This document shows, piece after piece, positions 5,689 through 24,707 of a stretch of 64,000 nt of DNA. The DNA lies in the NCBI GenBank assembly GCA_021781535.1, contig JAJXWO010000004.1:1-64000 (forward strand), read 5' to 3'. The number at the start of each line of letters is the position of its first letter. Within the stretch, counting starts at the first letter, position 1. Under the pieces are notes generated by a model that saw only the letters and a program-made list of their open reading frames with translations, searched no databases and had not been told where the DNA came from. A program made the position numbers and the translations under genes. The DNA is from Deltaproteobacteria bacterium. GTDB taxonomy: Bacteria; Desulfobacterota; Desulfuromonadia; Geobacterales; Pseudopelobacteraceae.

Positions 5689-8244
5689 CTATTCCGCCTG
5701 CTCGCCTGTTGGAGCGCGGCGCCGGATGAGCAGAACCATCACTGCCGGCAACGTCACCAGCGCAAACAGGGCCGTAAACCCTACCCCGAAATTGGTGGCC
5801 CAGCCGATCGAGGCCAGTGCGGGATAATCGGCTAACGCCAGGGAACCGAAACCGGCAATGGTGGTAAGCGCCGAGAGCAGGACTGCCCGCCCGGTCTGGA
5901 TGAAGCGGGATTCTCTGTCATAAGGATCCCGGGTTTCCACGCGGTGACGGACGTGCATGCCATAATCGCTTCCCATCCCGATAATCGTCACCAGCACCAT
6001 GGCATTCATGAAATTGAGCCCCATCCCGGAGAGCGCCATGGTCCCCAACATTGCCAGCGAGCCGGCAATGACCGGGAACATGGAGTAAAAGATCCCGTCG
6101 GGCGACTTAAAATGGGCCAAGAGCAGAAACAGCACCAAAAGACCGCCGATCAGGAAACTCCAGAGAAAACTCTGCTTAACTGAAGCGGCCAATTGTTCGC
6201 TCACCAGATCCACACTGGTAACCCGTGCAGTAGGGTCGATGCCGGCCAGTTCATGCAGAAAGGCGCTCTGGTTAAAACCGGTATTTTTGTAATACAGATA
6301 CAGCAGCGCGTGGTAACCGGACGCATCCTTGACCAGGTGCCGGTCCGCCACTCCCCGCAGCGGCGAGGCCTTCAGCCGGGCGAGAGCTTCCTCCTCGGGC
6401 ACCGGTTTCATGGCGCTGCCGGCAGAGAGCGCAGCTATGAACGGCTGAAACGGCTGTGGTTCAAACCCCTGCCGATCGAGCGCGGTGGTCAGGCCTGCTG
6501 CGGTCAAACCGTCCCGTTTTCTGGCGGATATGGCGTGGATGATCTCATCCTGCCGGACCCGGTTATTCACTATTTGCCCCAGCGATGACCAACTGCTGAT
6601 GCTGCCCGTGCTCATCAACTTTTGCGCCAGGCCGTCAACCCGTGCCGCGCGGTGCAGCACTTCTCCCAGTTTCTTCCCTTCCACCGCCACCAGCAGCTGT
6701 TTCGGCGCCAGGCTCAGGTGACGCTCAATCTTCTCCTGGGCCAGAAACGCCTCGGAGTGCCGTGGCTGCAGGTTTTTAAGATTGCCGTCGAAAAAGGTTT
6801 GAGTGGACGCTGCCGCCATGAAGATAATCGTCACAACGGAGACCGTCACGATGGCACGGGGAAATCGCGCGGCCAGACGCCAGACGCGGCGCAGGCCAAG
6901 CTCCGGTATCGGCCGGTATGTGGCGGGAAAGCGGCGTTCCATGTAGACCAGCAACGGAGGAAGAAAAAAAAGGGTCGTATAGAGCGAAAAAACCACCCCC
7001 AGCCCGACCAGCAGGCCCAGTTCAGAAAGGGCCCGTACGTCAGAAATCATCAGGGCAAAAAACGGTACCGCCGTTGTGGTGGCTGCGGTAAAGAGCCTGT
7101 GGCCGGTGTCGACAACCGACAGGTGCAGCGCCTCGTCAGCCCCTGTGCCGGCCGCTCGTTCACTGTGAAAACGGTCGTAGAGATGGATCGAGTAGTCGGT
7201 CCCGAGGCCGATGATCAGCGCCATAAAGGCAAAGGAAATGATGTGGATCGAGGGGAGCAGCAGCCCGGCGACTCCGAGCGCCAGCGCCACGCCGGCAGCA
7301 ATGATCAGCGGCAGCAGCAGCGTGGGAAGGATGCGGCGGTAGACCACATAAAAGATCGCCAGAACTACCGCCAGCGAAGAGAGGATGCAGGCGAGGATAT
7401 TGGACTTCATCACCGCTTCATCCAGCACCGCGCTGATATGGGCGCCGGCGCAGGAAATGGCGACCGTTGACCCCTGGCGCGCCGTGTTGATGCTCGCCAC
7501 CAGGGCGCGGGCAAAGGCCATGTCCTGCACCGGCCGGGCCGGTTCGGCGATCATGATCAGCACCTTGCCGTCCCGCGAAATGAAGTAGGGTGAGGCCGGA
7601 TCCAGATCGAGCGCCTGGCTTGCAGCTTTCAGCCGCGGAAGAATCAGGTCACGCAGGTAGAGCGGGTCAGCACTGGCCAACCCGGTCATGGCACCGCCGA
7701 ACTGACCGGCCAAGTCAGCCTGGAGGCGGCGCAGGGAGGCATCCATTGAGCCGGGGGTAAAATGCTGCAGTAAAGCGGGAACATCTTCAGGACCGATAAA
7801 GAGCTGCGGGCGGGCCACGGCATAGGCGATGAAATCAGTAAAAGCGGCAGCCTCATTCTCGTCGAAAACCCTCCAGGTAATGCGCCGGAAGGCCGGCTTC
7901 CCGTCAACCTGCGCCGTACGGAGGCGTTCGGCAAAACGCGCCGCCTCGCGGGGAAGTTCTTCCTTCTTCCCCTCCAACAAAAAATAGGCTTCGTTGGCGC
8001 TGCCGCTCCACTGCAACGAGTCGAGCAGAAGCCGTAACGCCGGTTGACGTGCCGGGAAGAGCTGAAAGATATCGGAGTCAAAGCGGGTGGTTGAGATCAC
8101 CGCTGCCGAGAGCAGCAGCGCGATAAAAAAGGCGCCTACTACGGCCCGGGGTTTGGTGGTGGTCGTCCGATAAATCCATTCCAGGTGGCGGCGGGTGAGA
8201 GAATTTACCAGGGAGGTCAGTCTGGAAAAAATTTTCAAGAACAT
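5689..8244 (-). CDS. MMPL/RND-family exporter
   Basis: An 851-residue inner-membrane transporter with duplicated architecture. One hydrophobic segment near residues 35-55 is followed by a periplasmic loop of about 200 residues, then a cluster of membrane helices carrying GLGTDYSIHLYDRF. A second periplasmic loop is followed by a second cluster carrying GMGSDYGMHV. These Asp-bearing motifs are the proton-relay helices of the MMPL branch. Members export lipids such as hopanoids (HpnN) or aryl-polyene intermediates. It starts 6 bases after the stop of the lipoprotein gene and is the last gene of the long lipid operon, so it most likely moves that operon's product across the inner membrane. Confidence 0.88.
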   Translation of the reverse strand: MFLKIFSRLTSLVNSLTRRHLEWIYRTTTTKPRAVVGAFFIALLLSAAVISTTRFDSDIFQLFPARQPALRLLLDSLQWSGSANEAYFLLEGKKEELPREAARFAERLRTAQVDGKPAFRRITWRVFDENEAAAFTDFIAYAVARPQLFIGPEDVPALLQHFTPGSMDASLRRLQADLAGQFGGAMTGLASADPLYLRDLILPRLKAASQALDLDPASPYFISRDGKVLIMIAEPARPVQDMAFARALVASINTARQGSTVAISCAGAHISAVLDEAVMKSNILACILSSLAVVLAIFYVVYRRILPTLLLPLIIAAGVALALGVAGLLLPSIHIISFAFMALIIGLGTDYSIHLYDRFHSERAAGTGADEALHLSVVDTGHRLFTAATTTAVPFFALMISDVRALSELGLLVGLGVVFSLYTTLFFLPPLLVYMERRFPATYRPIPELGLRRVWRLAARFPRAIVTVSVVTIIFMAAASTQTFFDGNLKNLQPRHSEAFLAQEKIERHLSLAPKQLLVAVEGKKLGEVLHRAARVDGLAQKLMSTGSISSWSSLGQIVNNRVRQDEIIHAISARKRDGLTAAGLTTALDRQGFEPQPFQPFIAALSAGSAMKPVPEEEALARLKASPLRGVADRHLVKDASGYHALLYLYYKNTGFNQSAFLHELAGIDPTARVTSVDLVSEQLAASVKQSFLWSFLIGGLLVLFLLLAHFKSPDGIFYSMFPVIAGSLAMLGTMALSGMGLNFMNAMVLVTIIGMGSDYGMHVRHRVETRDPYDRESRFIQTGRAVLLSALTTIAGFGSLALADYPALASIGWATNFGVGFTALFALVTLPAVMVLLIRRRAPTGEQAE

Positions 8245-8250
8245 CAGGGT

Positions 8251-8949
8251 CTATAATCCCTTGAGGGCAGAAAGCGGCATAACCGTATACCCGTCAAGAT
8301 GCGGCACGAAAACGGCGTCATCAAGAGGCGTGTTGACCTCCGGTCCATCAAGCGTTATCCGGATCCGGTCGTCACGATCATTGCGCAGATCGAGCTGCGC
8401 TGCAACCGGAACTCCGTTGACAACGGCATATTTGCTGTAACGGACAAGATCGCCGCGAACGGATTCCTTGGCTGTGATCAAGCCGTTTTCGTATGTTACC
8501 TTTTCTGAACATCCGAGCGTACCTGTGCGTTCTACCGTTCCGTTCAGCGGCTGTCCGCCGTCGCCCGGGTCGGCATCCATAACCCAGCGCATCAAGCGCC
8601 ATCCCTGCAAGCCCCCCTTCTCGGGCAGTTCATCAAAACGTCCCACATACGCCGTTGATCGTGAGGGATAGATCAGGGTAATGCGGTCTCCAAGGGCAAA
8701 TGCTTCCATCATTGTCGTGCCGAATGGTGAGAGCACCACCAGATGGAGCTCATCAGGGCGGCGAAAGAGCAGGTAGCCGCTTCCCCCCATACTTCCGCTC
8801 TGCGCGGCATGAATCGAGAGGGATACGGCGGACGAGAGCGTGTTCACGACAGCCCCCGGGCGGTAGTCGATGGGCGGAGCAGGAACAGTGGCGCAGGCGG
8901 TGAGCAGCAGCAACGGCAGCAGATGTTTTACTAATCGATACAACGGCAT
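8251..8949 (-). CDS. Outer-membrane lipoprotein, LolB-like
   Basis: A 232-residue protein with a lipoprotein signal peptide: a hydrophobic run after a short basic N terminus, ending in the lipobox LLTAC. The rest is beta-rich (SGYLLFRRPDELHLVVLSPFG) like the LolA/LolB fold. An ATG 18 bases upstream is possible, but I prefer 8949 because GAGGAAAG precedes it by 8 bases. It sits between a LolA-like gene and an MMPL exporter, so a periplasm-to-outer-membrane hand-off of lipid is the natural inference. The fold is assigned by resemblance. Confidence 0.75.
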   Translation of the reverse strand: MPLYRLVKHLLPLLLLTACATVPAPPIDYRPGAVVNTLSSAVSLSIHAAQSGSMGGSGYLLFRRPDELHLVVLSPFGTTMMEAFALGDRITLIYPSRSTAYVGRFDELPEKGGLQGWRLMRWVMDADPGDGGQPLNGTVERTGTLGCSEKVTYENGLITAKESVRGDLVRYSKYAVVNGVPVAAQLDLRNDRDDRIRITLDGPEVNTPLDDAVFVPHLDGYTVMPLSALKGL

Positions 8950-8973
8950 ACTATTTTCTTTCCTCATAATTAC

Positions 8974-9606
8974 CTATTCCAGCCGGAAATCCTTCTCTGT
9001 CAGGCCGACATTGCGACGTACTTTTTTCAGGGTCATGGTGGCCCGGTCGCCGTTTCGTTCATTAATAATGATTTTTCTGATGGTGCCATTTCCCATAAAA
9101 ACAATGGATATATCCTTTACCTGCCCTTTACCCTGCGGGGTGACCGTCAGGGTGTAGACGGAATTGGTCAGGTCGGCCTGCACTGCTACTCCGTCCGGCA
9201 AAGACGTGACCGGCGCTGCCAGTTTGGAAAACCACTGCTTCAGGCCCTGCTCCGGCGGAAGCGCAATTCTGGTGGGAGTCCTGTCTTTGCCTGAAACCTG
9301 TTCGATGATAGTGTCCCGCAGCAGCATGCGCCCGCTGAAGGGCGGGTTTATCTCCATAAAAAACAGATCGGGCTTTTTAAAGCGAAGTGAGCCGCTCATC
9401 ACCATGGTCCGCTTCATCAGGGAGAGCCGTTTTTCCTGGGTGATGTCGGCGGTAAAATCAGCAATGCCGGCAAAACCGTGACGTAACGCCTCCAGTCCTT
9501 CGACAGGAGAAATTGTCCGGGCCAAGCAGGGAGAGGCGGTCAGCAGGAGCACCGCCAGCAACAGAAAAAACACCGTGTGTAACGGTCGTGCCTGATTCAT
9601 ACGCAT
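8974..9606 (-). CDS. LolA-like periplasmic lipid/lipoprotein carrier
   Basis: A 210-residue secreted protein with a clear signal peptide (hydrophobic residues about 11-28, ending near CLARTIS). The mature part has the LolA pattern: GIADFTADITQEKRL, then GSLRFKKPDLFFMEINPP and a C-terminal KKVRRNVGL. The start ATG shares one base with the dehydratase stop (TGATG), indicating coupling. LolA paralogues are typical of aryl-polyene-like clusters, where they are thought to carry the lipid product rather than general lipoproteins. The chromosomal housekeeping lolA would be elsewhere. Confidence 0.82.
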   Translation of the reverse strand: MRMNQARPLHTVFFLLLAVLLLTASPCLARTISPVEGLEALRHGFAGIADFTADITQEKRLSLMKRTMVMSGSLRFKKPDLFFMEINPPFSGRMLLRDTIIEQVSGKDRTPTRIALPPEQGLKQWFSKLAAPVTSLPDGVAVQADLTNSVYTLTVTPQGKGQVKDISIVFMGNGTIRKIIINERNGDRATMTLKKVRRNVGLTEKDFRLE

Positions 9607-9989
9607 CACAGATTTCCCACCCCGAGGGTCAGTTGCACGGAGAGGAGCAGGTCCGCACCGCTGAAAACAGTCCCTTCTATCATGTGCAAACGCCCGAATG
9701 ATTTTATCACCCTGGCAGAGACGGTCAGCACCACCCCGACAGCCGGCGAGCCGGAAAATTCGGCATGATCGATTGAGGCCATAAAACCTCCCTCACCTTC
9801 CTCCTGCGCAACAACAATACCAGCCAGCTGGGCAACTGACTCAATCATGAGGATCTGGGAGAAACCGCAGGCAGCACCCACCCCTCTCCGGGCAATTCCC
9901 CGTACTCCCTGTTCCAGCTCGACAACCCGGTCAAGGAGCAGAAAGGGGTAGCGGTGGGGCAGATAGTGAGCCGGGTCGGGATTAAACAG
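9606..9989 (-). CDS. FabZ-type 3-hydroxyacyl-ACP dehydratase, probable CTG start
   Basis: A hotdog-fold dehydratase that would remove water from a 3-hydroxyacyl-ACP. The FabZ signature YLPHRYPFLLLDRV carries the catalytic His, and the opposing helix SQILMIESVAQLAG carries the Glu. The usual loop with GHFPG between them is missing, so the active-site region is shorter than in housekeeping FabZ. No ATG, GTG or TTG precedes the signature in frame. CTG at 9989 is preceded by GGGAGG at a 5-base gap and is the best start, giving 127 residues; the next possible start (GTG) would cut off the catalytic His. It overlaps the upstream ketosynthase gene by 8 bases. Confidence 0.8.
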   Translation of the reverse strand: MFNPDPAHYLPHRYPFLLLDRVVELEQGVRGIARRGVGAACGFSQILMIESVAQLAGIVVAQEEGEGGFMASIDHAEFSGSPAVGVVLTVSARVIKSFGRLHMIEGTVFSGADLLLSVQLTLGVGNL

Positions 9990-11025
9990 GGGCGCCTCCC
10001 TTAAAGCGGATGGCGTAGTACGGGCCGTCAGGTGAGGCAGCCACGTGCAGACCGGCCTGCTCCGATTGCAGCGAGGCGAGCAGTACCGCCATGGCGGTGC
10101 CCCCCATGGCCAGCGAACGGCCGACGGTCTGCCCGATGTCGGTCACGGAACGGGAGGAAACCCGCTCCAGCAGGGCCGGCATATCAGCTGCCGTTCCGGA
10201 GAGCGAAACGTGTGAACAGGAATCTGCAGGTCCGGCAAGCCGGTCGAGGCCGTCACTTTCATGTCCGGCCGCAAGCATGCCGATGGTCGTGATGGCTTCG
10301 ACAGCCGCTTTTACCGCAGCGCCACGCCGGGCGGCATGGGCCGCTCTCTCCAGGACAATGATGCCGCACCCTTCTCCGAAAGGCGCGGAAGCGGGCGTCA
10401 TCTGCCCCATGACATCAAAACCCTTGATTATGAGTGGGATGAGCTCATCCGCTCCTCCGGCCAGCATAATATCGGCACGCCCCTCTTCGATAAAACGGCA
10501 TGCCATCATGAACGCGGACTCTGCCGAGCAGAAGCGCTGGACCAGCGTAACGTTGGGCCCCTTGAAGCCATGCTCGATGGAAGCATTGCTGGCAGGGGAA
10601 TTGGGGACGGTGTTGGGAAATATCATCGGGATCAATCCCTCGACACCGCCCGTAAAGTACCCGGTCAGGAATTCCGCGGAATTTGATACTCCGCAAAAGC
10701 CGCTGCCGAGCGCAATCCCGACCCGTTCCGGAGGAAGCTGTTTCAGGTCGATGCCGGCATCTTTCAAGGCCAGGCCGGCCACCGCAACCGCAAACTGGCT
10801 GCAGCGGTCCATCTTGCGTGCCTTCATGGGCGGCATGAAGTCGGACGCCTTGAATCCGTCCACTTTTCCCCAGCGCAAGCCGTCCCTGCCGAGCACATCG
10901 CCGGGAATGGGCGCAAGTGCGCCGCATCCCGTACGCAGAAGATCCTGAATGGCGGCGATCCCTATTCCGGCAGCGGTGACGGCGGAGTAACCGGTAACGA
11001 CGATTCCTGAAATCGGACTATTCAT
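9982..11025 (-). CDS. Ketosynthase-like protein, chain-length-factor type
   Basis: A 347-residue thiolase-fold protein clearly related to FabF but degenerate. C166 (RFCSAESAF) stands at the nucleophile position. The HGTGT histidine motif is absent and the second histidine motif reads GRSLAMGG instead of GHxxGAxG. Without both histidines it should not condense malonyl units alone. It is translationally coupled (ATGA overlap) to the intact ketosynthase upstream, matching the KS/CLF heterodimers of aryl-polyene and type II polyketide systems. I infer that it is the partner subunit shaping chain length. Confidence 0.83.
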   Translation of the reverse strand: MNSPISGIVVTGYSAVTAAGIGIAAIQDLLRTGCGALAPIPGDVLGRDGLRWGKVDGFKASDFMPPMKARKMDRCSQFAVAVAGLALKDAGIDLKQLPPERVGIALGSGFCGVSNSAEFLTGYFTGGVEGLIPMIFPNTVPNSPASNASIEHGFKGPNVTLVQRFCSAESAFMMACRFIEEGRADIMLAGGADELIPLIIKGFDVMGQMTPASAPFGEGCGIIVLERAAHAARRGAAVKAAVEAITTIGMLAAGHESDGLDRLAGPADSCSHVSLSGTAADMPALLERVSSRSVTDIGQTVGRSLAMGGTAMAVLLASLQSEQAGLHVAASPDGPYYAIRFKGGAPV

Positions 11026-12227
11026 AGTGACAGCACCAGAGAAGTGATATTTCCGCCAAAAGCAAAGGAGTTGGACATGGCAATGGTACTATCGGTCGGC
11101 ACGCTGCCGGCATGGCAATACTCCAGGTCGCACTCCGGGTCCGGGCCGCGGTAATTGAGCGTCTGGGGAATTATTTTCTTATTGAGTGCGATAATGGTTG
11201 CAACGGTTTCGATAGCTCCTGCCGCCCCCAGACAGTGTCCGGTCATTCCTTTGGTAGAAATGAGAGGGACCCGGGGAGCACGCTCACCAAAGACCAGTTT
11301 CATCGCATTCGACTCGACCACATCATTGAGCGGAGTTCCGGTGCCGTGAGCGTTAACCCAGCCGACCTGCGACGCGTCAACAGCGGCCCGCTCAAGAGCC
11401 TGGAGCATGACACCCGCCGCAGCCGTACCACCCGGTTCAGGTGCCGTCATGTGGTATGCTTCGCCCGCCAGGGCATAGCCGAGTACAGCGCCGTACATCC
11501 GGGCGCCGCGAGCCCGGGCATCTTCCTCACGCTCCAGCACAACAAAGGCCGCTCCCTCACCAAGGGAAATGCCCTGGCGACCAAGACTGAAAGGAGCACA
11601 GGGCTGGGGGTCGACCACCCGCAGTGAATTGAATCCTGCAAAGGTCAACATCGAAAGCGTATCTGCGCCGCCTGCCACCATGAGCTTCTGACGACCGCAG
11701 GCCACCAGGTCGGCCGCCCACCCGATGGCGGTTGCGGAAGAGGAACAGGCGGTCGTCACCGTCCCCTGATAGCCGCACAGATTATAGGTCCGGGCGATAT
11801 CCGTCGAGGTCTGGTCCGGCAGAATGCCGCGGAGCAGCGAGGGGCGCTCCTCCCTTCCCTCGAGAAGGGCTTTCAACCAGATTTCCCCCTGGAACATGCC
11901 GGCGGCGCCCCCCCCCATGGAGACCCCCATGTCATACGGGGAATAGCGGTCGGCGCCACCACTGTCCCGGAGCGCCTGGCCGGCGGCAATGACGCCAAAC
12001 TGATCGGAACGGGACAGTTTGCGGGCTGAACGTGAATCGAAATAGTCGTGCGGATCATACCCTGTGATCTGCGCCCCTATTTTGGCCGGAAAGGGGGAGA
12101 CATCAAACAGGTCCACCGGCTGAATGCCGCTTCTTCCTGCGCAGAGCGCATCGGTAAATTCCGTTACGCTTTTTCCGACGCTGCAGAATACTCCCAAACC
12201 GGTAATAACGACACGGTGCCTGGTCAT
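11022..12227 (-). CDS. Beta-ketoacyl-ACP synthase, FabF-type, catalytically complete
   Basis: A 401-residue condensing enzyme with the full Cys-His-His set: C161 in TTACSSSATA, H294 in NAHGTGTPLND and H331 in TKGMTGHCLGAAG, with K326 just before. It would extend an acyl-ACP by two carbons using malonyl-ACP. Its stop and start overlap the chain-length-factor gene and the reductase gene by 4 bases each (ATGA), so the three products are made in step. Linkage to the operon's own ACP and acyltransferase suggests a dedicated pathway rather than primary fatty-acid synthesis. Confidence 0.92.
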   Translation of the reverse strand: MTRHRVVITGLGVFCSVGKSVTEFTDALCAGRSGIQPVDLFDVSPFPAKIGAQITGYDPHDYFDSRSARKLSRSDQFGVIAAGQALRDSGGADRYSPYDMGVSMGGGAAGMFQGEIWLKALLEGREERPSLLRGILPDQTSTDIARTYNLCGYQGTVTTACSSSATAIGWAADLVACGRQKLMVAGGADTLSMLTFAGFNSLRVVDPQPCAPFSLGRQGISLGEGAAFVVLEREEDARARGARMYGAVLGYALAGEAYHMTAPEPGGTAAAGVMLQALERAAVDASQVGWVNAHGTGTPLNDVVESNAMKLVFGERAPRVPLISTKGMTGHCLGAAGAIETVATIIALNKKIIPQTLNYRGPDPECDLEYCHAGSVPTDSTIAMSNSFAFGGNITSLVLSL

Positions 12228-12964: not shown

Positions 12965-12994
12965 AACCACCCCAATGAACTAATTTACTGCATC

Positions 12995-13023
12995 AGTATA
13001 CCGGTCGCACCGAAAAATGTCCA
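12995..13023 (-). promoter_or_regulatory. Sigma-70-type promoter upstream of fabG-like gene
   Basis: Read on the minus strand: TGGACA, exactly 17 bases, TATACT. It lies in the only sizeable gap (111 bases) inside the right part of the operon and would give a leader of about 25 bases before the reductase. It lets the fabG-to-exporter half be transcribed independently of the upstream radical SAM genes. Confidence 0.7.
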
Positions 13024-16993: not shown

Positions 16994-17247
16994 TTACGGT
17001 GTTCCCCGATATATCCGGCCATGCTGCGTACCGAGGCAAAAACCGTTGAACCGGTGGCTGCGTCGGGGACGACCACCCCGAATTCCTTCTCCATGGCCAC
17101 TACCAGCTGGAGGGCATCGATGGAGTCAAGCCCCAGACCTTCGCCGAACAACGGGGCATCCGTCTCAATTTCATCGGGCGACATCCCCTCGATACGCAGG
17201 CTGTCAATGATCATCTGCTTAACCTTTTCAATTAACTCTTCACTCAT
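16990..17247 (-). CDS. Acyl carrier protein
   Basis: An acidic 85-residue four-helix carrier. The phosphopantetheine attachment site is S42 in LGLDSIDALQL (housekeeping ACPs have DSL). The length is normal for the family. It is translationally coupled to the downstream B12 radical SAM gene by an ATGA overlap. As the only ACP in the operon it should tether the growing chain for the ketosynthase, reductase and dehydratase encoded nearby. Loading needs a phosphopantetheinyl transferase, which is not in this window. Confidence 0.93.
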   Translation of the reverse strand: MSEELIEKVKQMIIDSLRIEGMSPDEIETDAPLFGEGLGLDSIDALQLVVAMEKEFGVVVPDAATGSTVFASVRSMAGYIGEHRK

Positions 17248-17303: not shown

Positions 17304-18212
17304 TCATGCGCCTTTTGTTTTGTCCGATTCGGAACCTTTGCCAAAAAAGTCATAAAAATTGTACCACTGGTCCGGATACGCACGTATGTATCTCTCAAAA
17401 ACAGCCACCAGCTTCTCCATGCCGGTGCGTATGGCGGTGCCGTGCTCCCCGCGGCCACCGCTGAAGCGGATCGGTTCTTCAAGAATGGTGGCATAGAGTC
17501 CATTTTTCTCCATCAGGACAAAAACCGGAATTACCGGCGCCCCGCTGGCCAGCGCCAGATAGGCGGCCCCCACCGGGATGTTGGCCGGACGGCCGAAGAA
17601 ATTCATCCGGATGGTATGGGATGAACCGTCCCTATCGCCGAGAATCGCCAGCACCTCGTTACGCCTCAGTGCATTGACCGCCTCGACAATGGCCAGCGGC
17701 GAGGCATCATTCCGGTCGACATAAATGAACCTGATGCCGCGTTCCCGCCTGACCGTTTCACGCAGTTCATTTACCTTTTCATCCGGCTCGCGAAAGGTCA
17801 GCATGTTGACCGTATATCCCATATCGGCCAGGCCCAGACCGCCCAGTTCCCAGTTGCCGAGATGGGGCGAGACGAGGATCGCGCCGTTACCGGCAGCCAA
17901 CGCCTGATCCAGCGTTTCGCTGCTGCTGCGCCGCCCGATCATCGCCTGGAGTTTTTCCCCCCTGAGCCGCATCAGCAGCATCACATCGCACCAGTTGTGG
18001 GCAAACATGCGAACGGTTGAAAATACCAGTCGTTCCACGTTATTTCTACCGGTGACAACCCGCAGGTTGGCACGCAGGTCCCGGCGCATATCAGCCAGCA
18101 GCAGATAAAACAGGCCGCCCCAGAAAAAAGTGAACGGCGGGAACAGCCACCGCGGCACCAGGATCGTGAATAGTTTGATAAAGAACAGGTTGAGGTTGTT
18201 GTAAAAGGTCAC
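17304..18212 (-). CDS. Lysophospholipid acyltransferase (LpxL/HtrB type)
   Basis: A 302-residue membrane-associated acyltransferase with a hydrophobic N terminus (about residues 10-40). The catalytic HX4E motif is H117...E122 in SPHLGNWELGG. A second conserved block is ILGDRDGSS, then FFGRPANIPVGAAYLA, as in lipid A late acyltransferases. It would move an acyl chain from ACP to a lipid acceptor on the inner leaflet. In aryl-polyene clusters a homologous enzyme attaches the polyene to a glycolipid, so the analogous anchoring role is inferred here. Confidence 0.88.
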   Translation of the reverse strand: MTFYNNLNLFFIKLFTILVPRWLFPPFTFFWGGLFYLLLADMRRDLRANLRVVTGRNNVERLVFSTVRMFAHNWCDVMLLMRLRGEKLQAMIGRRSSSETLDQALAAGNGAILVSPHLGNWELGGLGLADMGYTVNMLTFREPDEKVNELRETVRRERGIRFIYVDRNDASPLAIVEAVNALRRNEVLAILGDRDGSSHTIRMNFFGRPANIPVGAAYLALASGAPVIPVFVLMEKNGLYATILEEPIRFSGGRGEHGTAIRTGMEKLVAVFERYIRAYPDQWYNFYDFFGKGSESDKTKGA

Positions 18213-18271
18213 TGTTATAACTCATACCGGTGCGATAGTCGTGCGTGGGAAGACTCTCCGTTTATCATGGG

Positions 18272-19627
18272 TTAAAAGAAAAGTTCCCATGCGCACAGCG
18301 CCAGTTTTCTGAAGGTTATATTTCCCCTGCCGGCAGCCTGCTTGAACCCCTCGGTTGCCTCCCGCGAACGACGGTAAAACTTAACAAAGGCCTTGATCAG
18401 CAAAAATTGCAGATAATGGCGATTTATCAGGGGATGGCGGAAAACGATGTGCAAGCCATCGTAGAATTTCCAGCGTCGGCAAAAGATGCGATCCTTGATG
18501 TCCTCATAGAGTTTCGTCCCGGGATACGGAGTCAGGATGGAAAACTGGGCAATGTTGGTATTGAGCCTGACCGCCAGGTCAATCGTTTTTTCCACTTCAG
18601 CGGCGGTCTCGTTCAGGTTGCCGATGATGTAACTCCCATAGGATTCAACCCCGTTTTGCCGCAAGATTTCGACAGCCAGAGTGACATCAGACGCCTTGGT
18701 GTTCTTGCCGAGGGAGTTCAGTGTTTCCTCGTTGCCACTTTCAATGCCGAGATAGACCGTTGTGGAACCCGCCGCCGCCATCTTGGCCACCATGTCCGGA
18801 TTTTTCACAATCGTATCGACCCGTGACAGGTTCCACCATTTCAGGTCATAGCCACGGGCGATGATCCCGTCGGCAATCTGTCCGACCCGCGGCGGCGCAA
18901 GGGTAAAGTTGTCATCCATGAAGCAAACCGCCCGAAAACCATAGCGGTTATAGACCTCATCAATCTCGGCCAGCACCGATTCGGCACTCCGGAAGCGCCA
19001 TCCTCTGCCGAAAAAGCTCGATGAAGAGCAGAAATGACAGGCACCGGGGCAGCCGCGACTGGTAACAACGGGAGTTATGGGACGATCGGCCATGCTGGCC
19101 CGGTACTGATGGAGGTCCACGAGATGCCGGGCGGGAAACGGCAGCGTTTCAACATCGATCGGATCGGCGGCAGGAGTTTCAATCAGGTGGCGGCCATCCT
19201 TGATGATCAACCCCTTGACCGCGGCAATGCTCTCCCGGTTCTGGATGGCGGTTAGAAGACCCGGGAAAATGAATTCCCCCTCTCCCCTGACGATATAGTC
19301 TACATATCCGGAAGCAAAAATATCCTCCGCCATGAATTGCGGATGGGGCCCCCCCATAACCACCGGCCGGCCGGTAGCAGATACCCTGCGGGCAATGGCA
19401 AGCGCCTTGTTTGCCCTGGTCGTATCAGCCGAAATCCCCACAACATCGGCGCGCCGGATATCGGCGTCATCCAGTCGTCCGTCATCAGCAGCCAGGTCGC
19501 GTACAACCACACTGTGCCCTGCCAGTTCAAGGGTGGCGGCGACATAGAGGAGACCGATTGGAGGAAGACTCAGACCAAAGGTGTTAAATACGCTGGAAGA
19601 TCGAGGGTTTACCAGCAGTACGTTCAT
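18272..19627 (-). CDS. B12-binding radical SAM protein (number 3 of 5)
   Basis: A 451-residue protein. The N-terminal cobalamin-binding-like domain carries MNVLLVNPRSSSVF, VVMGGPHPQFMAEDI and VRGEGEFIFP. The cluster motif is C193-x3-C197-x2-C200 (RGCPGACHFC), and LTPYPGT occurs near residue 380. The position usually holding the cobalamin-ligand His (VRDLAADDG) has none. A basic, aromatic C-terminal tail of about 60 residues could contact membrane. Its ATG overlaps the stop of the SPASM-like gene upstream by one base. Function beyond radical chemistry on a lipid-like substrate cannot be stated. Confidence 0.85.
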   Translation of the reverse strand: MNVLLVNPRSSSVFNTFGLSLPPIGLLYVAATLELAGHSVVVRDLAADDGRLDDADIRRADVVGISADTTRANKALAIARRVSATGRPVVMGGPHPQFMAEDIFASGYVDYIVRGEGEFIFPGLLTAIQNRESIAAVKGLIIKDGRHLIETPAADPIDVETLPFPARHLVDLHQYRASMADRPITPVVTSRGCPGACHFCSSSSFFGRGWRFRSAESVLAEIDEVYNRYGFRAVCFMDDNFTLAPPRVGQIADGIIARGYDLKWWNLSRVDTIVKNPDMVAKMAAAGSTTVYLGIESGNEETLNSLGKNTKASDVTLAVEILRQNGVESYGSYIIGNLNETAAEVEKTIDLAVRLNTNIAQFSILTPYPGTKLYEDIKDRIFCRRWKFYDGLHIVFRHPLINRHYLQFLLIKAFVKFYRRSREATEGFKQAAGRGNITFRKLALCAWELFF

Positions 19628-21003
19628 CAGTTGCTACCCCTTTTTTTCGTCTTTGGCGGAAGAGTTTTGAACTCATGTTCCCAGATCGGATCGGCGATCT
19701 CACCATAGGCGCGGGAGTAGTCATCCATGCTGTCGGCCAGGCCGGTGAAAATTTCATCCGCTCCCTCATGGGTCGGATACGCGCCCTCCGAGGCAAACAG
19801 CTCCCGTCCGGCAGCAGGTTGATCGATCAGCATGCAGGGGCGCAGCAGATTGTCATGTTCACCCTGCTTCTCGCGGATTTTAGTGAAAAACGGTGATGCC
19901 AGCGCCTCATGAATGGTTGTGCGGCGGATATTGTCAACGGCAAAATGGCAGAAGACGCACGGCTCAATATCGCCGTTGGCGTTGATATGAAAATACTTGC
20001 GCCCGCCGGCCAGACAGCCGGAGATCATTGGTCCGTCGTTCCAGAAATCGATGAACAGCATCGGCTTGGTGGCACGGTAGTCGATAACGGTTCGACGCAG
20101 GCCATCGCGCTGTTCGGGGGTCGGCATCAGCTCGGGCTCAGGCTTACGCCCAACCGGAACATAGGAAAAGAGCCACATCGCAAAGACCCCCTTCTTCAGG
20201 AGCATGTCGATATAGTCGCCATTGGTGATGATGTCGGAGTTTTTGCGCGAGTGGGTGAATGACCCGCAGAAGGAGAGTCCCCCCTCCCGCATCAGGTCCA
20301 TGGCATGCATGACTTTTTTGAAATGTCCCGCACCGCGACGTTCGTCGGTTTCCTGTTCGTATCCTTCAAGCGAAAATGACGGCATGACATTGCCGACCTC
20401 GGTCAGCTTCTCAACCATCTTTTCATCGATCAAGCCGCCGTGGGTAAAGACCAGGAAGGCCATGTCGCTGTGCTTTTTGAATATCTCGAAAATACCTTCC
20501 ATATAAAACGGCTCACCGCCGGATATTACCGCAAAATAGACACCCATCTCCTTCATCTGGAGCAAAATGGAGTCGACTTCGTCCAGAGTCAGCTCCAGCG
20601 ACTTGTCGTAGTCACCGGCATAACAGCCATAGCAGTTCAGGTTGCAACGCATGGTAGGACTGATGACCACGGTTGAAGGTGGATAGTAACCGTGCGTGTC
20701 GCTCCACTCCTTACGTTTGTTGGTGCCGTTCAGCAAGTGATTGACGAGCAGGTTGCTGATCCATTTGTCACGCTGATTGGGATGCAGATCGCGCAGAATC
20801 CGGCGGGGGAACTCGATACTCGGATGCTTATCCCGCACCAGGCCGCGAATCCAGCGGATGCGCTCCTTGTAGTAGTCCTTCTTGGGGATCATCTCCATCA
20901 CGTGGGTCATACGGATCAGGTTCTCATCCGACGAATTTATCGCCAGTTCCAGAAGATAGGAAAGGGCCTTTTCTTTGGTATAATTTTTCAGGGTGTTTAT
21001 CAT
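19627..21003 (-). CDS. Radical SAM protein with SPASM-like C terminus
   Basis: A 458-residue protein without a B12 domain. About 110 N-terminal helical residues precede the cluster motif C120-x3-C124-x2-C127 (MRCNLNCYGC). A typical SAM-binding GGEPFY motif follows, and the C terminus is Cys-rich (GCLAGGRKYFHI, then EPCVFCHF and RPC), as expected for auxiliary Fe-S clusters. Such enzymes modify peptides, hopanoid-like lipids or sugars. The start has no competing upstream ATG. It is 14 bases from the glycosyltransferase stop and coupled to the next B12 radical SAM gene. Confidence 0.85.
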   Translation of the reverse strand: MINTLKNYTKEKALSYLLELAINSSDENLIRMTHVMEMIPKKDYYKERIRWIRGLVRDKHPSIEFPRRILRDLHPNQRDKWISNLLVNHLLNGTNKRKEWSDTHGYYPPSTVVISPTMRCNLNCYGCYAGDYDKSLELTLDEVDSILLQMKEMGVYFAVISGGEPFYMEGIFEIFKKHSDMAFLVFTHGGLIDEKMVEKLTEVGNVMPSFSLEGYEQETDERRGAGHFKKVMHAMDLMREGGLSFCGSFTHSRKNSDIITNGDYIDMLLKKGVFAMWLFSYVPVGRKPEPELMPTPEQRDGLRRTVIDYRATKPMLFIDFWNDGPMISGCLAGGRKYFHINANGDIEPCVFCHFAVDNIRRTTIHEALASPFFTKIREKQGEHDNLLRPCMLIDQPAAGRELFASEGAYPTHEGADEIFTGLADSMDDYSRAYGEIADPIWEHEFKTLPPKTKKRGSN

Positions 21004-21017
21004 ATGAATGCGCCTCG

Positions 21018-21680
21018 TTACATGTTACGTAAAAATGTCATGCTGATGTTTACCGTATCCATGAATGGCCGGTAGTGGCTGGTTGCGCGTCCATCGGCAA
21101 CCCGTGCGGCAACCGGGAGGGAACCGACCGTGAAGCCGCTCTTCCAGGCTTTCAGCAAGATTTCCATCTCCAGTGCGTATCCGTTTGATGTTAATGAAAG
21201 TTTTTTCAATACGTCACCTGAATAGCACCTGAAACCGGACTGACTGTCGGTGATTTCAAAACCGGTACGTTTCCAGATACACCAGACGCCGATCCGGTTC
21301 CAGATTTTGCGGAGGCCGGCCATCTGTTCAAACTGTGATCGACGGGACGCAATAAGAATACCCCACCTGCCGCTTTGTGCAATCGAGAGCAGCCGCGGGA
21401 TTGCAGAGACGTCATGTTGGCCATCGGCATCGATGGTGACCACCGCGTCAAAACCGGACTCACGTGCCCAGGCAAACCCTGTTTTCAGCGCGGCGCCCTT
21501 ACCGAGGTTTCGCGGGTGGCGGAGCAGCGTCACCGGCAATCCGGCCAGCAGCCGGGACGTACCATCCGTCGAGCCATCATCTACCAGCACGATCGGCACG
21601 CCATGTTCCAGGCACTCCCGCACGACCTGCAGAATGGTCTTTTCAGCATTATATGCAGGAATCAGGATACATGCTGCCAC
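21018..21680 (-). CDS. Family 2 glycosyltransferase (polyprenyl-phosphate sugar synthase type)
   Basis: A 220-residue GT-A glycosyltransferase. It has the opening strand CILIPAYNAEKT, the nucleotide-binding VDDGSTDGT, the NLGKGAALKTG string of the DPM1-like subgroup, and the metal-binding DADGQHD. The start is a GTG inside the end of the deacetylase gene (19-base overlap). With no C-terminal membrane helices it is likely a soluble enzyme acting at the membrane face. With the deacetylase next door it suggests that the lipid product or its acceptor carries a sugar. Confidence 0.86.
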   Translation of the reverse strand: MAACILIPAYNAEKTILQVVRECLEHGVPIVLVDDGSTDGTSRLLAGLPVTLLRHPRNLGKGAALKTGFAWARESGFDAVVTIDADGQHDVSAIPRLLSIAQSGRWGILIASRRSQFEQMAGLRKIWNRIGVWCIWKRTGFEITDSQSGFRCYSGDVLKKLSLTSNGYALEMEILLKAWKSGFTVGSLPVAARVADGRATSHYRPFMDTVNISMTFLRNM

Positions 21681-22540
21681 GTGTTCATTAACTCCTTGAT
21701 GGTGACAAATTGATACCGTTGGAACAGCCCGCTCAAGCGGGGAGCCGCATCTGTTCGAGTCCCATAGGATACGAACCGTTTCAGAGAGGGGAGGCCAAGC
21801 CGGGGGCCGGCAGGGTCCACCTCGCGGGGATGAAGATACAAAACAGCCGGTTGGTGGGACCGGTTCAGCTCATCGATAGTCGCACAGATGGTCCTGAAAG
21901 GAAAAAATCTGAACCCCCAGCCGCCACCGGTCGGCAGGTTGCCGCCCCACAATCGCGTCACCATCGGCGGGATTTCCCACAGGCCCGCTCCTTCACCTTC
22001 AAGACGGTAGGGAATACGGCTGCCGCGGGAATTACCCACGAACGGGAGCGGATTAAGACTTGAATCGTAGCGATACCCTTCTTCCCGCAGGATGGCAAAG
22101 GGCCACCCAGCCTGTTCCGCCAAAGACCATTGCGGCGCCCGGTATCCAATTGGGCGGTGCCCGGTCTGTTCCACCAGAATCCGTGCGGTGAGCTGCAGCT
22201 CCTCCCGGAACTGTTGCGGTGTCAACTCCGACACCAGACGGTGCGAATACCCGTGTGAAGCTATTTCATGCCCTGCCGAACAGATCATCGGCGCCAAATC
22301 CGGATTGTTTTCCGCCACGGAACCGAGCATGAAAAAGGTGCCCTTCTGACCATGCTCGGAAAGCAGCGCCAGAATTTTCTCCACGTTTGTCCGCACCCGC
22401 CATGATCCGCGAGGAGGAACAGCCACAGCCCTTCCCGGCTCGCAGACATGGTACCAGTCCTCCACGTCAACTGTTAAAACATTGTGCGCCGTAACGTCGC
22501 TCCGAGACCTGAAGATAAAGAAATAAACATTACATAACAA
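21662..22540 (-). CDS. Polysaccharide deacetylase (carbohydrate esterase 4)
   Basis: A NodB-fold deacetylase. The metal-binding DVED motif is in LTVDVEDWYH and the two zinc histidines are in ASHGYSHRL. The later strings GYRAPQWSL and YLHPREVD complete the family pattern. It belongs to the group often found beside exopolysaccharide and PEP-CTERM loci. The start is uncertain: TTG at 22540, 6 bases beyond the methyltransferase stop, gives 292 residues, and no ATG or GTG in frame precedes the catalytic core. It probably removes an acetyl group from a sugar handled by the adjacent glycosyltransferase. Confidence 0.85.
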   Translation of the reverse strand: MLCNVYFFIFRSRSDVTAHNVLTVDVEDWYHVCEPGRAVAVPPRGSWRVRTNVEKILALLSEHGQKGTFFMLGSVAENNPDLAPMICSAGHEIASHGYSHRLVSELTPQQFREELQLTARILVEQTGHRPIGYRAPQWSLAEQAGWPFAILREEGYRYDSSLNPLPFVGNSRGSRIPYRLEGEGAGLWEIPPMVTRLWGGNLPTGGGWGFRFFPFRTICATIDELNRSHQPAVLYLHPREVDPAGPRLGLPSLKRFVSYGTRTDAAPRLSGLFQRYQFVTIKELMNTWQHVS

Positions 22541-22546
22541 ATGATA

Positions 22547-23293
22547 TCAAGTCAATACACCTATCCCCTCTGAAGTACCGGTCCGTTTGCGGCACACCAG
22601 AACAATTTCATCGACACCGGCCGTATCGACCAGTCTATCGATGAATTTCAAACGCTTTTGAATGAGCATCCCCAGCGGCATCAGAACCTTATTATAGCAC
22701 CACATCGCTTTCCGCCGGTGATGTTTGAGCCACCAGACGCCAAAATCCAGCAGCCGCGGGTTCGCCGGTTGCATGCCGTAAATGGCACTTTTTTCGAGGA
22801 CCAGGCCATGGGAGGCAATCAACGCCAGCAAATCAGCAGGATCATACCTGCGCACATGGCCCACGAATTCGTCAAATTTTGTCCAGCATTTTGTATGCAG
22901 CGGAACGGAAAAGACAAAGCAGCCGCCCTCCTTGAGCACGCGGCTTACCTCACCAAAAACCCGCCGGTCATCTTCGGCATGTTCGATGACATCAAACGCG
23001 CAAACGAGTTCGAATTTCCCGGCGCTGAACGGTAGGGCACCGATTTCACCGGTGACCGCAATGCCGCCGCACTCCTCCAGGCGTTCGATCACCGGTGGGC
23101 TGATGTCTACGAAACTGGTACCGCATATTGGTAAACGCGGGCGCAGGCCAGGACCTATTTCCAGGCGTGCCGGGGCAAGCGGCAGCAAGCCGGAAATCAG
23201 CGGCCAGGTATTGAAACGATCGGGCCGTTCCAGGTGGGACTCCGACCAGAGAACATCATAGAAATCGCGGTTGATGGCGGTGCTACAGCGCAT
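22547..23293 (-). CDS. SAM-dependent methyltransferase (class I, ubiE/type 11 fold)
   Basis: A 248-residue methyltransferase-like protein. Motif I is RLEIGPGLRPRLP, followed by ALPFSAGKFELVCAFDVIEHAEDD and VLKEGGCFVFSVP. An ATG at 23377 is in frame, but 23293 is chosen because AGGAG lies 7 bases upstream. This gives an 11-base overlap with the preceding radical SAM gene. The C-terminal basic helix (WWLKHHRRKAMWCYNKVL) may dock to membrane. The substrate is unknown; a hydroxyl or carboxyl of the cluster's lipid is plausible. Confidence 0.82.
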   Translation of the reverse strand: MRCSTAINRDFYDVLWSESHLERPDRFNTWPLISGLLPLAPARLEIGPGLRPRLPICGTSFVDISPPVIERLEECGGIAVTGEIGALPFSAGKFELVCAFDVIEHAEDDRRVFGEVSRVLKEGGCFVFSVPLHTKCWTKFDEFVGHVRRYDPADLLALIASHGLVLEKSAIYGMQPANPRLLDFGVWWLKHHRRKAMWCYNKVLMPLGMLIQKRLKFIDRLVDTAGVDEIVLVCRKRTGTSEGIGVLT

Positions 23294-24707
23294 GGTACTG
23301 CTCCTGGCGACATTTTGTAACGTCGGCTTCATGTATTGACTCTGGAAATGGTTGCTGGAAAGAACATGTATCCGCACCTCCTGCCGTAAGGCGGTCGTTG
23401 GGCCCCTTGCGGAGAATGTTGTATGCCAGGCTTGTGAGGCGGCGGCCAGGATTTCTCCAGACCCGCGACAGGACGGCAGGCCAGCTATACGCTTCCTTGC
23501 GCGCCTCCAGCCACCCCCGGTAGAGCTGTTCGGGCGACATCAGCTTCGGCCGGAAAACGACCTCCGAATGGTTGTAACGGTTCCACTCCCTGTGCAGAAG
23601 GCGCCGTTCCTGGTCATACTGTTGAAAAAGCCTTGTTCCCGGATACGGGGTCAGCAGGTTGAATGTGGGGACACTTGCAGCACACCCCTCAACGAAGCGA
23701 AGCGTTTTTTCGAAGATGCTTTGGTCATGGTCGTCAAAGCCGAAAATAAACGACGTTTCGAGGATAATGCCGGCATCACTTACCCGCTTCATTAGTTCGG
23801 CCTGAGATGTCTGTCCCGCCGATTTGGCAAGCAGTGCATACGGCCCCGTCACCGACTCGATTCCGACGAAGAGGCCGATGCAACCGGAACGGGCGACAAG
23901 CTTGAGCAGCTCCCGGTCTTCGGCAAAACGCAGGCTTGTTTGTGATCCCCAGCGTATCCCCAACTCGGCCATCCCTTCAAGAACCGGCCGCGCCATCGCT
24001 GGATCCCCCAGCAGATTGTCGTCGAGGAAGATTACCAGCTTGCGGGGGAAAGAGCGGATCTCCGCAAGGATGTCGGCCGGGTCGCGGTAGCGGAAACGAT
24101 TGCCGAAATAGTGCGTTACGGTGCAAAAAGCGCAGTCGTAGGGGCAGCCGCGGCTGGCCTGGATGGTCTGGGTCGTCAGGTACCGCTTGCCGGCCAGGAT
24201 TTCTCGGCGCGGCCAGGGAACTTCGAGTGTATCGTCCTGCGGTATCGGAGCGCGGTATACCTTTTCGAGCCTGCCGCCGACAAAATCATCGAGGAGCATG
24301 GCCATGACCGGTTCAGCCTCGCCTATGACCACTGCATCCGCATGGGCACAGGCTTCTTCGGGCATAACCGTCGGGTGCATTCCCCCCATGATGACCGGGA
24401 CCCCTTCTCCCCTGAATTGATCGGCTATTTCGTAGGCACGGGTCGCCTGGTGTGTCATGGCGGTAATTCCGACGAGGTCGAACTGTCCGCCGTACGGAAT
24501 AGCGTCCTGGCTTTCATCCACGAGGGTCACCTCCCACTGCGGCGGAGTCGCTGCGGCAACCTGCTGGAGAGAGAGTGAAGGGAGCTGGAAATACTTTGCC
24601 CAGCCGAGCTTGTGCGTTGCAGGGTAAATGAGAAGGAGTCTCGGACGAGCCTGGTGGGGGAGGCGGCGGTGCGAAAACCTTGCTTGTTTTGATGATTCTT
24701 CTGGCAT
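23283..24707 (-). CDS. B12-binding radical SAM protein (number 4 of 5)
   Basis: About 474 residues from the preferred ATG at 24707; an in-frame start at 24794 would add 29 residues. The cobalamin-binding-like domain carries RLLLIYPATHKLGW, VIMGGMHPTVMPEEA and IGEAEPVM. The cluster motif is C188-x3-C192-x2-C195 (RGCPYDCAFC), then LLTPYPGT. It is a paralogue of the protein at 15707-16993. It is the first gene of the long minus-strand train, and no DxHxxG motif is seen. Unlike its paralogue it has a basic N-terminal extension of about 20 residues and a C-terminal tail of about 45 residues rich in polar residues. Confidence 0.85.
   Translation of the reverse strand: MPEESSKQARFSHRRLPHQARPRLLLIYPATHKLGWAKYFQLPSLSLQQVAAATPPQWEVTLVDESQDAIPYGGQFDLVGITAMTHQATRAYEIADQFRGEGVPVIMGGMHPTVMPEEACAHADAVVIGEAEPVMAMLLDDFVGGRLEKVYRAPIPQDDTLEVPWPRREILAGKRYLTTQTIQASRGCPYDCAFCTVTHYFGNRFRYRDPADILAEIRSFPRKLVIFLDDNLLGDPAMARPVLEGMAELGIRWGSQTSLRFAEDRELLKLVARSGCIGLFVGIESVTGPYALLAKSAGQTSQAELMKRVSDAGIILETSFIFGFDDHDQSIFEKTLRFVEGCAASVPTFNLLTPYPGTRLFQQYDQERRLLHREWNRYNHSEVVFRPKLMSPEQLYRGWLEARKEAYSWPAVLSRVWRNPGRRLTSLAYNILRKGPNDRLTAGGADTCSFQQPFPESIHEADVTKCRQEQYHAL

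What the first reader, a model, noticed from the sequence alone, without database searches (positions are those of the whole stretch)
5689..24707. Radical-SAM-rich, aryl-polyene-like lipid assembly operon of unknown product
Seen directly: one minus-strand train with ACP, FabD-like transferase, KS, KS-partner, FabG, FabZ, thioesterase, lysophospholipid acyltransferase, LolA-like carrier, lipoprotein and MMPL exporter, plus four B12 radical SAM proteins, one SPASM-like radical SAM, a methyltransferase, deacetylase and glycosyltransferase. Established: aryl-polyene clusters share the carrier, exporter, KS/CLF, dehydratase and acyltransferase set; pairings of fatty-acid enzymes with several radical SAM proteins have been proposed (not proven) for ladderane lipids in anammox bacteria. 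Inference: this operon makes a radically modified acyl lipid (methyl-branched, cyclised or cross-linked) attached to a sugar-containing acceptor and moved to the outer membrane. The lack of an aromatic-acid ligase and ammonia lyase argues against an aryl polyene.
Basis: partly seen in the sequence, partly recalled or inferred. Interest (0 to 1): 0.88.

Follow-up and report, generated by a model that had tools for sequence, protein, structure and literature searches.

The report
Radical-enzyme-rich outer-membrane lipid operon
Iron-reducing Geobacter-type bacteria carry a conserved gene set that probably builds an unusual fatty chain, reshapes it with several radical enzymes, attaches it to a sugar-bearing lipid and ships it to the outer membrane; it is a distinct relative of the pathways for aryl polyene pigments and of those suspected for ladderane lipids, and its product is unknown.

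Summary
Window 5689-24794 (minus strand) is one tight train: ACP, acyltransferase, active ketosynthase, dead ketosynthase partner, ketoreductase, FabZ-like hotdog protein, thioesterase, LpxL-type acyltransferase, glycosyltransferase, deacetylase, methyltransferase, LolA, lipoprotein, MMPL exporter, four B12 radical SAM proteins and a SPASM protein. It is no local oddity: the SPASM marker is in 83 of 141 genomes of the order. Core radical enzymes are SPASM, rSAM2 and a TIGR04072 member; rSAM3 and rSAM5 are optional. A further B12 enzyme outside the span (26800-28269, plus strand) co-occurs: 70 of 83 against 4 of 58. The same B12 enzymes sit in sister clusters of aryl-polyene type, many with an ammonia lyase, which this genome lacks. 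A 2009 paper noted Geobacter clusters similar to the suspected ladderane ones, so the kind is known; I found no description of this subtype in ten searches of an open-licence library. Best reading: a synthase for a radical-tailored, probably polyene, acyl chain on an outer-membrane glycolipid. Product and chemistry are not shown. As an aryl polyene or ladderane cluster it fails tested features.

The parts
5689..8244 (-). MMPL-family exporter (851 aa)
   Evidence: PF03176 131.3 bits; best NCBIfam HpnN 196.5 bits, below its cut-off 751.85
8251..8967 (-). LolB-like lipoprotein
   Evidence: PF03550 25.0 bits, cut-off 23.7; N-terminus ...LLLLTAC
8974..9609 (-). LolA-like periplasmic carrier
   Evidence: PF03548 40.9 bits
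9606..9989 (-). short FabZ-like hotdog protein without the GHFP His loop, Glu kept; probable CTG start at 9989
   Evidence: frame and start candidates; conservation; PF07977 21.3 bits, under cut-off 23
9982..11025 (-). ketosynthase partner (chain-length-factor-like): Phe at the Cys site, catalytic His sites changed
   Evidence: model mean pLDDT 87.0; FabF structures rank first, ishigamide and AntDE KS/CLF entries among the first ten
11022..12227 (-). ketosynthase with intact Cys-His-His
12224..12970 (-). FabG-type ketoreductase
   Evidence: TIGR01830 270 bits, cut-off 297.75; NF009466 238.7 bits over cut-off 222
13076..14455 (-). rSAMladd: B12-binding radical SAM, TIGR04072 (core)
   Evidence: 384.9 bits over cut-off 360; CX3CX2C
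14455..14877 (-). 4HBT thioesterase-like protein
   Evidence: PF13279 47.9 bits
14874..15710 (-). FabD/MdcH-like acyltransferase, EHSMGI motif
   Evidence: PF00698 36.9 bits; conservation; motif
15707..16993 (-). rSAM2: B12 radical SAM with DUF4070 (core)
   Evidence: 46 of 48 loci
16990..17247 (-). acyl carrier protein
   Evidence: PF00550; NF006617 71.4 bits, cut-off 70
17304..18212 (-). LpxL/PatA-type acyltransferase, HLGNWE motif
   Evidence: PF03279 111.5 bits; NF005919 121.8 bits, below cut-off 209
18272..19627 (-). rSAM3: B12 radical SAM, BchE-like (optional)
   Evidence: TIGR02026 190.1 bits, below cut-off 481.35; over 50% identity in 10 of 48 loci
19627..21003 (-). radical SAM/SPASM protein with N-terminal helical part (core; with the ACP among the best conserved)
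21018..21680 (-). GT2 glycosyltransferase, PpgS-like
   Evidence: PF00535 85.7 bits; NF058614 106.9 bits, below cut-off 370
21662..22540 (-). polysaccharide deacetylase-family protein with DUF3473
22547..23377 (-). SAM-dependent methyltransferase (optional; start uncertain, 23314 or 23377)
   Evidence: PF08241 44.9 bits; 5 of 48 loci
23283..24794 (-). rSAM5: B12 radical SAM with DUF4070 (optional)
   Evidence: over 50% identity in 17 of 48 loci
24944..25921 (-). rSAM6: radical SAM without B12 domain (optional)
   Evidence: over 50% identity in 4 of 48 loci
   Evidence: orthologue in 70 of 83 SPASM-positive and 4 of 58 SPASM-negative genomes of the order
28273..28893 (+). PagL-like protein gene next to rSAM7; membership less sure
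   Evidence: PF09411 77.8 bits; relatives near the operon in 9 of the 80 loci

Best explanation
A dedicated type II fatty-acid/polyketide-like pathway for an outer-membrane lipid. The KS with its dead partner extends an ACP-bound chain with units loaded by the FabD-like protein; FabG reduces and a hotdog protein (with housekeeping FabZ) dehydrates; no enoyl reductase was found in the operon, so a conjugated polyene is the likely chain. Core radical enzymes (two B12 proteins and the SPASM protein in the operon, one B12 protein beside it) tailor the chain or its head, most likely by C-methylation of sp2 carbons, possibly with ring or C-C bond formation. The LpxL-type enzyme moves the chain from ACP to a sugar-bearing lipid prepared by the GT2 and deacetylase; LolA, the LolB-like lipoprotein and MMPL carry it to the outer membrane. 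Shown: genes, active-site residues, conservation, co-occurrence. Inferred: each chemical step and the product.
For: Gene content; tight spacing. Among the 61 close loci of 80: upstream, n=48: FabD-like 48, 4HBT 48, deacetylase, GT2, SPASM, LpxL and ACP 47 each, rSAM2 46; downstream, n=32: FabG, KS, partner and LolA 28 each, hotdog 27, MMPL 25, LolB 22. KS Cys/His/His kept in 12 of 12; partner has Phe (11) or Tyr (1) at the Cys site and Ser at the first His site in 12 of 12. Partner model fits KS and KS/CLF folds. rSAM7 co-occurs, 70 of 83 against 4 of 58. Ten fetched sister neighbourhoods share rSAM2 (9), rSAM7 (9), GT2 (9), LpxL (9), MMPL (8), KS and partner (10); one of them scanned has an aromatic amino acid lyase of 558.7 bits. 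The TIGR04072 protein next resembles BzaD (200.1 bits) and tryptophan 2-C-methyltransferase (144.4 bits; PDB 6wte 124.5 bits), which as recalled act on sp2 carbons.
Against: No product, mutant or expression data. The radical SAM reaction type cannot be read from sequence: apart from TIGR04072 every NCBIfam score of the radical SAM proteins is below its curated cut-off. Missing enoyl reductase in the operon does not exclude use of housekeeping enzymes. The hotdog protein lacks the FabZ His loop, so its dehydratase role is uncertain. Starter and extender are unknown. In 4 of 32 loci with enough downstream DNA the KS half is not found there. The SPASM protein's best fold matches are peptide-modifying enzymes.
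Confidence: 0.6

Rival explanations
1. It is a true aryl polyene pathway whose aromatic starter is supplied by genes elsewhere in the genome (for example an acyl-CoA from aromatic metabolism), the B12 enzymes methylating the aryl head.
For: Shares most aryl polyene parts; sister clusters with the same B12 proteins have an ammonia lyase within 12 kb in 27 of 62 (a lower bound, contigs are short) and somewhere in the genome in 49 of 62; the window genome has three PF14535 matches elsewhere, one a fragment at a contig end.
Against: No PF00221 match in the window's draft genome and in only 1 of 83 SPASM-positive genomes, which also has the sister cluster; no ligase among the 20 scanned proteins; one KS pair, one ACP.
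Confidence: 0.15
2. It modifies lipid A: the LpxL-type enzyme puts the special chain on lipid A and the GT2/deacetylase add an amino sugar.
For: Lip_A_acyltrans match, deacetylase and GT2, PagL-like gene beside rSAM7.
Against: LolA/LolB/MMPL-type carriers are not part of the lipid A route (recalled: Lpt system); in NCBIfam the acyltransferase scores higher with the mannoside acyltransferase model (121.8) than with lipid A models (74.4 at best), all below cut-off.
Confidence: 0.15
3. It makes ladderane-type cyclobutane lipids, or their polyunsaturated precursor, as proposed for anammox clusters and Desulfotalea.
For: TIGR04072 ('rSAM_ladder_B12') over cut-off; Rattray 2009 lists Geobacter members among organisms with similar clusters and a G. 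sulfurreducens protein NP_951518 with Phe163/Gly328/Arg333, the commonest residues of the partners here.
Against: No phytoene-desaturase-like and no phenylacetate-CoA-ligase protein among the 20 scanned; no ladderanes were detected in Desulfotalea; PMC3098273 (passages) ties the hydrocarbon of Geobacter bemidjiensis to pfa-like and ole genes, and the window genome has a locus of that kind elsewhere. Anammox sequences could not be compared here.
Confidence: 0.04

Closest known systems
Aryl polyene (APE) clusters (Acinetobacter, Xenorhabdus; passages of PMC8358021, other parts recalled)
   Same: KS with chain-length-factor-like partner, KR, dehydratase-like hotdog protein, ACP (paper passages); thioesterase, GT2, LPLAT, LolA, lipoprotein, MMPL (recalled)
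   Different: No ammonia lyase or ligase found; one KS pair and one ACP where the paper describes a second KS and two ACPs; FabD-like acyltransferase, deacetylase, SPASM and B12 radical SAM proteins added
Ladderane-like FASII/radical-SAM clusters of Kuenenia and Desulfotalea (PMC2649909)
   Same: FASII genes with radical SAM proteins, non-canonical FabF, glycosyltransferase, deacetylase; Geobacter named there as having similar clusters
   Different: No phytoene-desaturase-like gene and no phenylacetate-CoA ligase found; LolA/LolB/MMPL genes in the operon; no direct sequence comparison with Kuenenia was possible
Sister 'clade A' clusters in the same class (ten neighbourhoods L131-L140 of 62)
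   Same: By BLAST to window proteins: KS and partner 10, rSAM2 9, rSAM7 9, GT2 9 (one on the other strand), LpxL 9, MMPL 8, ACP 8, 4HBT 7, LolA 6, PagL-like 5 of 10
   Different: Two KS genes in 8 of 10; no SPASM match in 9 of 10 and no FabD or deacetylase match in the ten; ammonia lyase in the genome of 49 of 62; TIGR04072 proteins 32-35% identical to the window's
pfa-like/ole polyunsaturated hydrocarbon clusters (PMC3098273, passages)
   Same: Secondary lipid synthesis in Geobacter
   Different: Multidomain synthases; encoded elsewhere in this genome (contig C114)

Membership tests
Aryl polyene cluster | Heterodimeric KS-CLF | tested here: inconclusive
   Adjacent KS with Cys/His/His and partner without them fit; heterodimer itself not shown
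Aryl polyene cluster | Genes for an aromatic starter: ammonia lyase and ligase (recalled) | tested here: not met
   No PF00221 match in the own draft genome; neither among 20 scanned proteins
Aryl polyene cluster | LolA, lipoprotein, MMPL, with GT2 and LPLAT (recalled) | tested here: met
Aryl polyene cluster | Dehydratase pair (Pfam ApeI- and ApeP-like) | tested here: not met
   One short FabZ-like protein without the His loop; no ApeI- or ApeP-like Pfam hit in it
Aryl polyene cluster | Yellow polyene pigment | not testable with these tools
   Needs culture
Ladderane-type cluster | FASII genes with radical SAM proteins; TIGR04072 member | tested here: met
   TIGR04072 384.9 bits, cut-off 360. 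That anammox proteins belong to TIGR04072 was not checked
Ladderane-type cluster | Phytoene-desaturase-like oxidoreductase and phenylacetate-CoA ligase in the cluster | tested here: not met
   Absent; an amino-oxidase-family gene is near the sister cluster of G258
Ladderane-type cluster | Ladderane lipids | not testable with these tools
   Needs lipid analysis
TIGR04072 family | Score over curated cut-off | tested here: met
   Met, but in a clade apart from the 454-713-bit members
pfa-like polyunsaturated fatty acid synthase | Multidomain KS/AT/ACP/KR and FabA-domain proteins | tested here: not met
   No such multidomain protein among the 20 scanned

The most novel reading that the evidence does not exclude
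The B12 radical SAM proteins rSAM2, TIGR04072 and rSAM7 together with the SPASM protein perform radical C-C bond formation on an ACP-bound polyene, giving a cyclised or cross-linked membrane lipid of a class not yet described, in culturable iron reducers; this would be a tractable relative of the unsolved ladderane pathway.
Probability: 0.15. Interest if true: 0.85.

Novelty: new variant of a known kind. Interest (0 to 1): 0.58.

Why it matters
A conserved, apparently outer-membrane-directed lipid pathway of unknown product has its marker gene in 83 of 141 sampled genomes of an order known for moving electrons across the outer membrane. It shares radical enzymes with aryl-polyene-type clusters and with the TIGR04072 family named for ladderane synthesis, so solving it in a culturable relative would say what these radical enzymes do, a question open since the anammox clusters were listed in 2009.

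Tried and rejected
Polyunsaturated hydrocarbons as product: dropped as a lead because this genome has a separate locus with pfa-like and ole-like genes and PMC3098273 (passages) links such genes to the hydrocarbon. A Cys active site in the KS partner (a Cys is present) was rejected: the ungapped alignment puts Phe at the nucleophile position, the Cys one residue on. My first view that sister (clade A) and window-type clusters exclude each other was dropped: the window's own genome has parts of a sister cluster at contig ends, so whole-protein counts miss such copies. Plasmid records: 438 matched the KS partner and 86 the TIGR04072 protein, none at 60% identity or more; a clade A KS gave 1254, again none at 60%. 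PDB entry 9s5h/9s5i, a KS pair similar to KS and partner, could not be identified. The SPASM model (mean pLDDT 77.6) matched peptide-modifying SPASM enzymes (SkfB, SuiB) best, query TM-scores 0.50-0.54, which does not fix a function. Literature: ten searches, in a library of open-licence papers; searches found nothing; the locus tags were guessed from memory. No tRNA and no Rfam match in the window. The Fisher test (p 1.5e-21) is not corrected for kinship. Trees are quick searches with SH-aLRT only, on samples of the loci, with long outgroup branches and a warning that clades A and C may be joined falsely.


Full report
OBSERVATION. The window lies on contig C15 of a 3.8 Mb draft genome in 133 contigs, completeness 94.93, contamination 8.87. 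With the starts I chose, 15 of the 18 gene junctions in this span are overlaps or gaps of 14 bases or less, as expected for one operon. The seven radical SAM proteins of the neighbourhood, including 24944-25921 and 26800-28269, each have CX3CX2C; none has a DxHxxG motif, which for the B12-type ones fits base-off cobalamin (recalled). The small FabZ-like gene is longer than the ORF list shows: the frame is open upstream, relatives share a PHRxPF stretch, and a CTG behind GGGAGG at 9989 is the likely start.

CONSERVATION. A scan of genome contigs with the TIGR04072 protein gave 80 kept loci of 138. Sixty-one are close (58% identity or more to the window protein) and 19 distant, among them Syntrophaceae bins and one Acidobacteriota bin. 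Of the 61, 48 reach at least 9.5 kb upstream and 32 at least 9.5 kb downstream; the rest were not counted on that side. A gene counted if an ORF on the same strand and expected side had it as best match at over 35% identity (over 50% for rSAM2, 3, 5 and 6, so relatives of rSAM3 at 26-28% are not counted). Upstream: FabD-like 48, 4HBT 48, deacetylase 47, GT2 47, SPASM 47, LpxL 47, ACP 47, rSAM2 46 of 48; rSAM5 17, rSAM3 10, MT 5, rSAM6 4 of 48. Downstream: FabG 28, KS 28, partner 28, LolA 28, hotdog 27, MMPL 25, LolB 22 of 32. The listed architectures show the same order in most of the complete loci. The SPASM protein is in 83 of 141 genomes of the order at E 1e-100 or better, 59 of 103 among the better ones; identity to the window in an aligned set of 26 others runs 70-98%.

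A PART OUTSIDE THE SPAN. The B12 radical SAM protein at 26800-28269(+), next to a PagL-like gene, has matches at E 1e-100 or better in 94 of 141 genomes. I took 74 as orthologues (67% identity or more over what is present; a few are fragments or carry a stop in the frame); 70 of these are among the 83 SPASM-positive genomes and 4 among the other 58. In 36 genomes both lie on one contig, within 30 kb in 33, the window's included. This is the main evidence that it belongs to the pathway; the test is not corrected for kinship. Thirteen SPASM-positive genomes have no orthologue by this measure.

SISTER CLUSTERS. TIGR04072 matches over the cut-off occur in 140 of 277 genomes of the class. The listing shows 62 genomes at 454-713 bits (clade A) and others at 411 bits and below, which include the window (384.9) and also a third clade with other neighbours (L046, L047). 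In a tree of 60 rows clade A is one side of a branch (SH-aLRT 100), and window-type and distant loci group together (95). In ten clade A neighbourhoods (L131-L140, of 62) BLAST to window proteins finds KS and partner in 10, rSAM2 9, rSAM7 9, GT2 9, LpxL 9, MMPL 8, ACP 8, 4HBT 7, LolA 6, PagL-like 5; it misses diverged genes. Scanned examples add an aromatic amino acid lyase (558.7 bits) and, below their cut-offs, an ApeP-like (20.9), a FabA-like (19.8) and an AMP-ligase fragment (27.2). A lyase lies within 12 kb of the clade A gene in 27 of 62 (a lower bound, many contigs end) and somewhere in the genome in 49 of 62; 13 have none. Among the 83 SPASM-positive genomes only G191 has one, and it also has clade A. 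In four further genomes of the order (G164, G165, G175, G177) without a clade A match in the list, a relative of rSAM7 at 49-50% identity lies 8-9 kb from the lyase. Thus the window type is related to aryl-polyene-type clusters but lacks the lyase. The window's own genome also holds parts of a sister cluster on contigs C56 and C13: on C56 a clade A TIGR04072 protein is cut at the contig end after 195 residues, 66% identical to that of G258, and the KS genes of both contigs group with those of G258. That the two contigs adjoin is not shown. The family search did not show it as a clade A member, so co-occurrence counts are lower bounds.

DISTANT LOCI. Several of the 19 distant loci (L112, L118, L121, L124, L128, L130) have two or three extra ORFs before the LpxL gene. 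The three of L112 and one of L124 were scanned: DUF2229/HGD-D proteins and a BcrAD-type ATPase, a set for low-potential electron chemistry by family knowledge. L113 and L115 show only TIGR04072 and FabG of the set.

MECHANISM. In 12 KS/partner pairs the KS keeps Cys/His/His in 12; the partner has lost the Cys and the first His in 12 and the second His in 11. The partner's model (mean pLDDT 87.0) matches FabF first and the KS/CLF entries of ishigamide and AntDE within the first ten. With a KR but no enoyl reductase among the scanned proteins, a polyene is likely (inference). The TIGR04072 protein is next most like BzaD and tryptophan 2-C-methyltransferase, rSAM2 and rSAM5 carry DUF4070, rSAM3 is BchE-like and rSAM7 HpnJ-like, these below NCBIfam cut-offs; so methylation is my first guess and ring chemistry my second. 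The LpxL-type enzyme keeps HX4E. Export by LolA/LolB/MMPL is by analogy.

KNOWN OR NEW. Rattray 2009 (outline, passages and one section read) reports that members of Geobacter and Pelobacter carbinolicus contain gene clusters similar to those of Kuenenia; its Table 2 lists a G. sulfurreducens protein with Phe163, Gly328 and Arg333, the commonest residues of the partners here (11, 6 and 10 of 12), while its Pro298 and Ala300 differ, so the link is suggestive only. PMC9902471 (passages) reports 'ladderane' cluster calls in Desulfobacterota and other phyla, of unknown function. PMC9821293 (passages) states that the enzymes making the ladder have not been identified; PMC4790861 (passages) reports tests of the anammox candidates in E. 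coli, with no phytoene desaturase activity for two of them. I found no paper on this gene set in the ten searches named under Tried and rejected, in an open-licence library only. Hence: new variant of a known kind.

Noticed in passing
L152 (G000 contig C56) and L153 (contig C13): The window's own genome holds parts of a second, related cluster at contig ends: MMPL end, DUF3261 lipoprotein, ApeI-like (below cut-off), 4HBT, KS, partner, rSAM2-like, start of a clade A TIGR04072 protein; on C13 a deacetylase-family gene, KS, partner, ACP, flavoprotein-like ORF, AMP-ligase.
   Followed up: partly
L148 (G000 contig C114), 2282-19900: pfa-like multidomain synthases (KS-KS-FabA; KS-AT-ACP-KR) beside four genes whose Pfam families fit OleA, OleB, OleC and OleD, and a phosphopantetheinyl transferase: a likely polyunsaturated hydrocarbon locus.
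   Followed up: partly
L066:666-1619: A Cas6-family protein (PF10040, 53.4 bits) sits just upstream of the operon (L034 is the same contig); ORFs of similar size (288-317 aa, not scanned) stand there in others.
   Followed up: no
L039:8420-16852 and L079:5952-8319: Five ORFs stand between FabD and 4HBT in L039 and two between rSAM2 and FabD in L079; by their opening residues they look like restriction-modification and similar genes, but they were not scanned.
   Followed up: no
L112:390-3589: DUF2229/HGD-D proteins and a BcrAD-type ATPase inside the distant version of the operon.
   Followed up: partly
G164, G165, G175, G177: An aromatic amino acid lyase and an rSAM7 relative lie 8-9 kb apart in genomes without a listed clade A match; neighbourhoods not read.
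   Followed up: no
window 173-2434: Repetitive 753-aa plus-strand ORF, adhesin-like by eye.
   Followed up: no
L092: In Geotalea toluenoxydans several genes of the operon appear in more than one ORF piece (for example SPASM and MMPL), from frameshifts or sequence errors.
   Followed up: no
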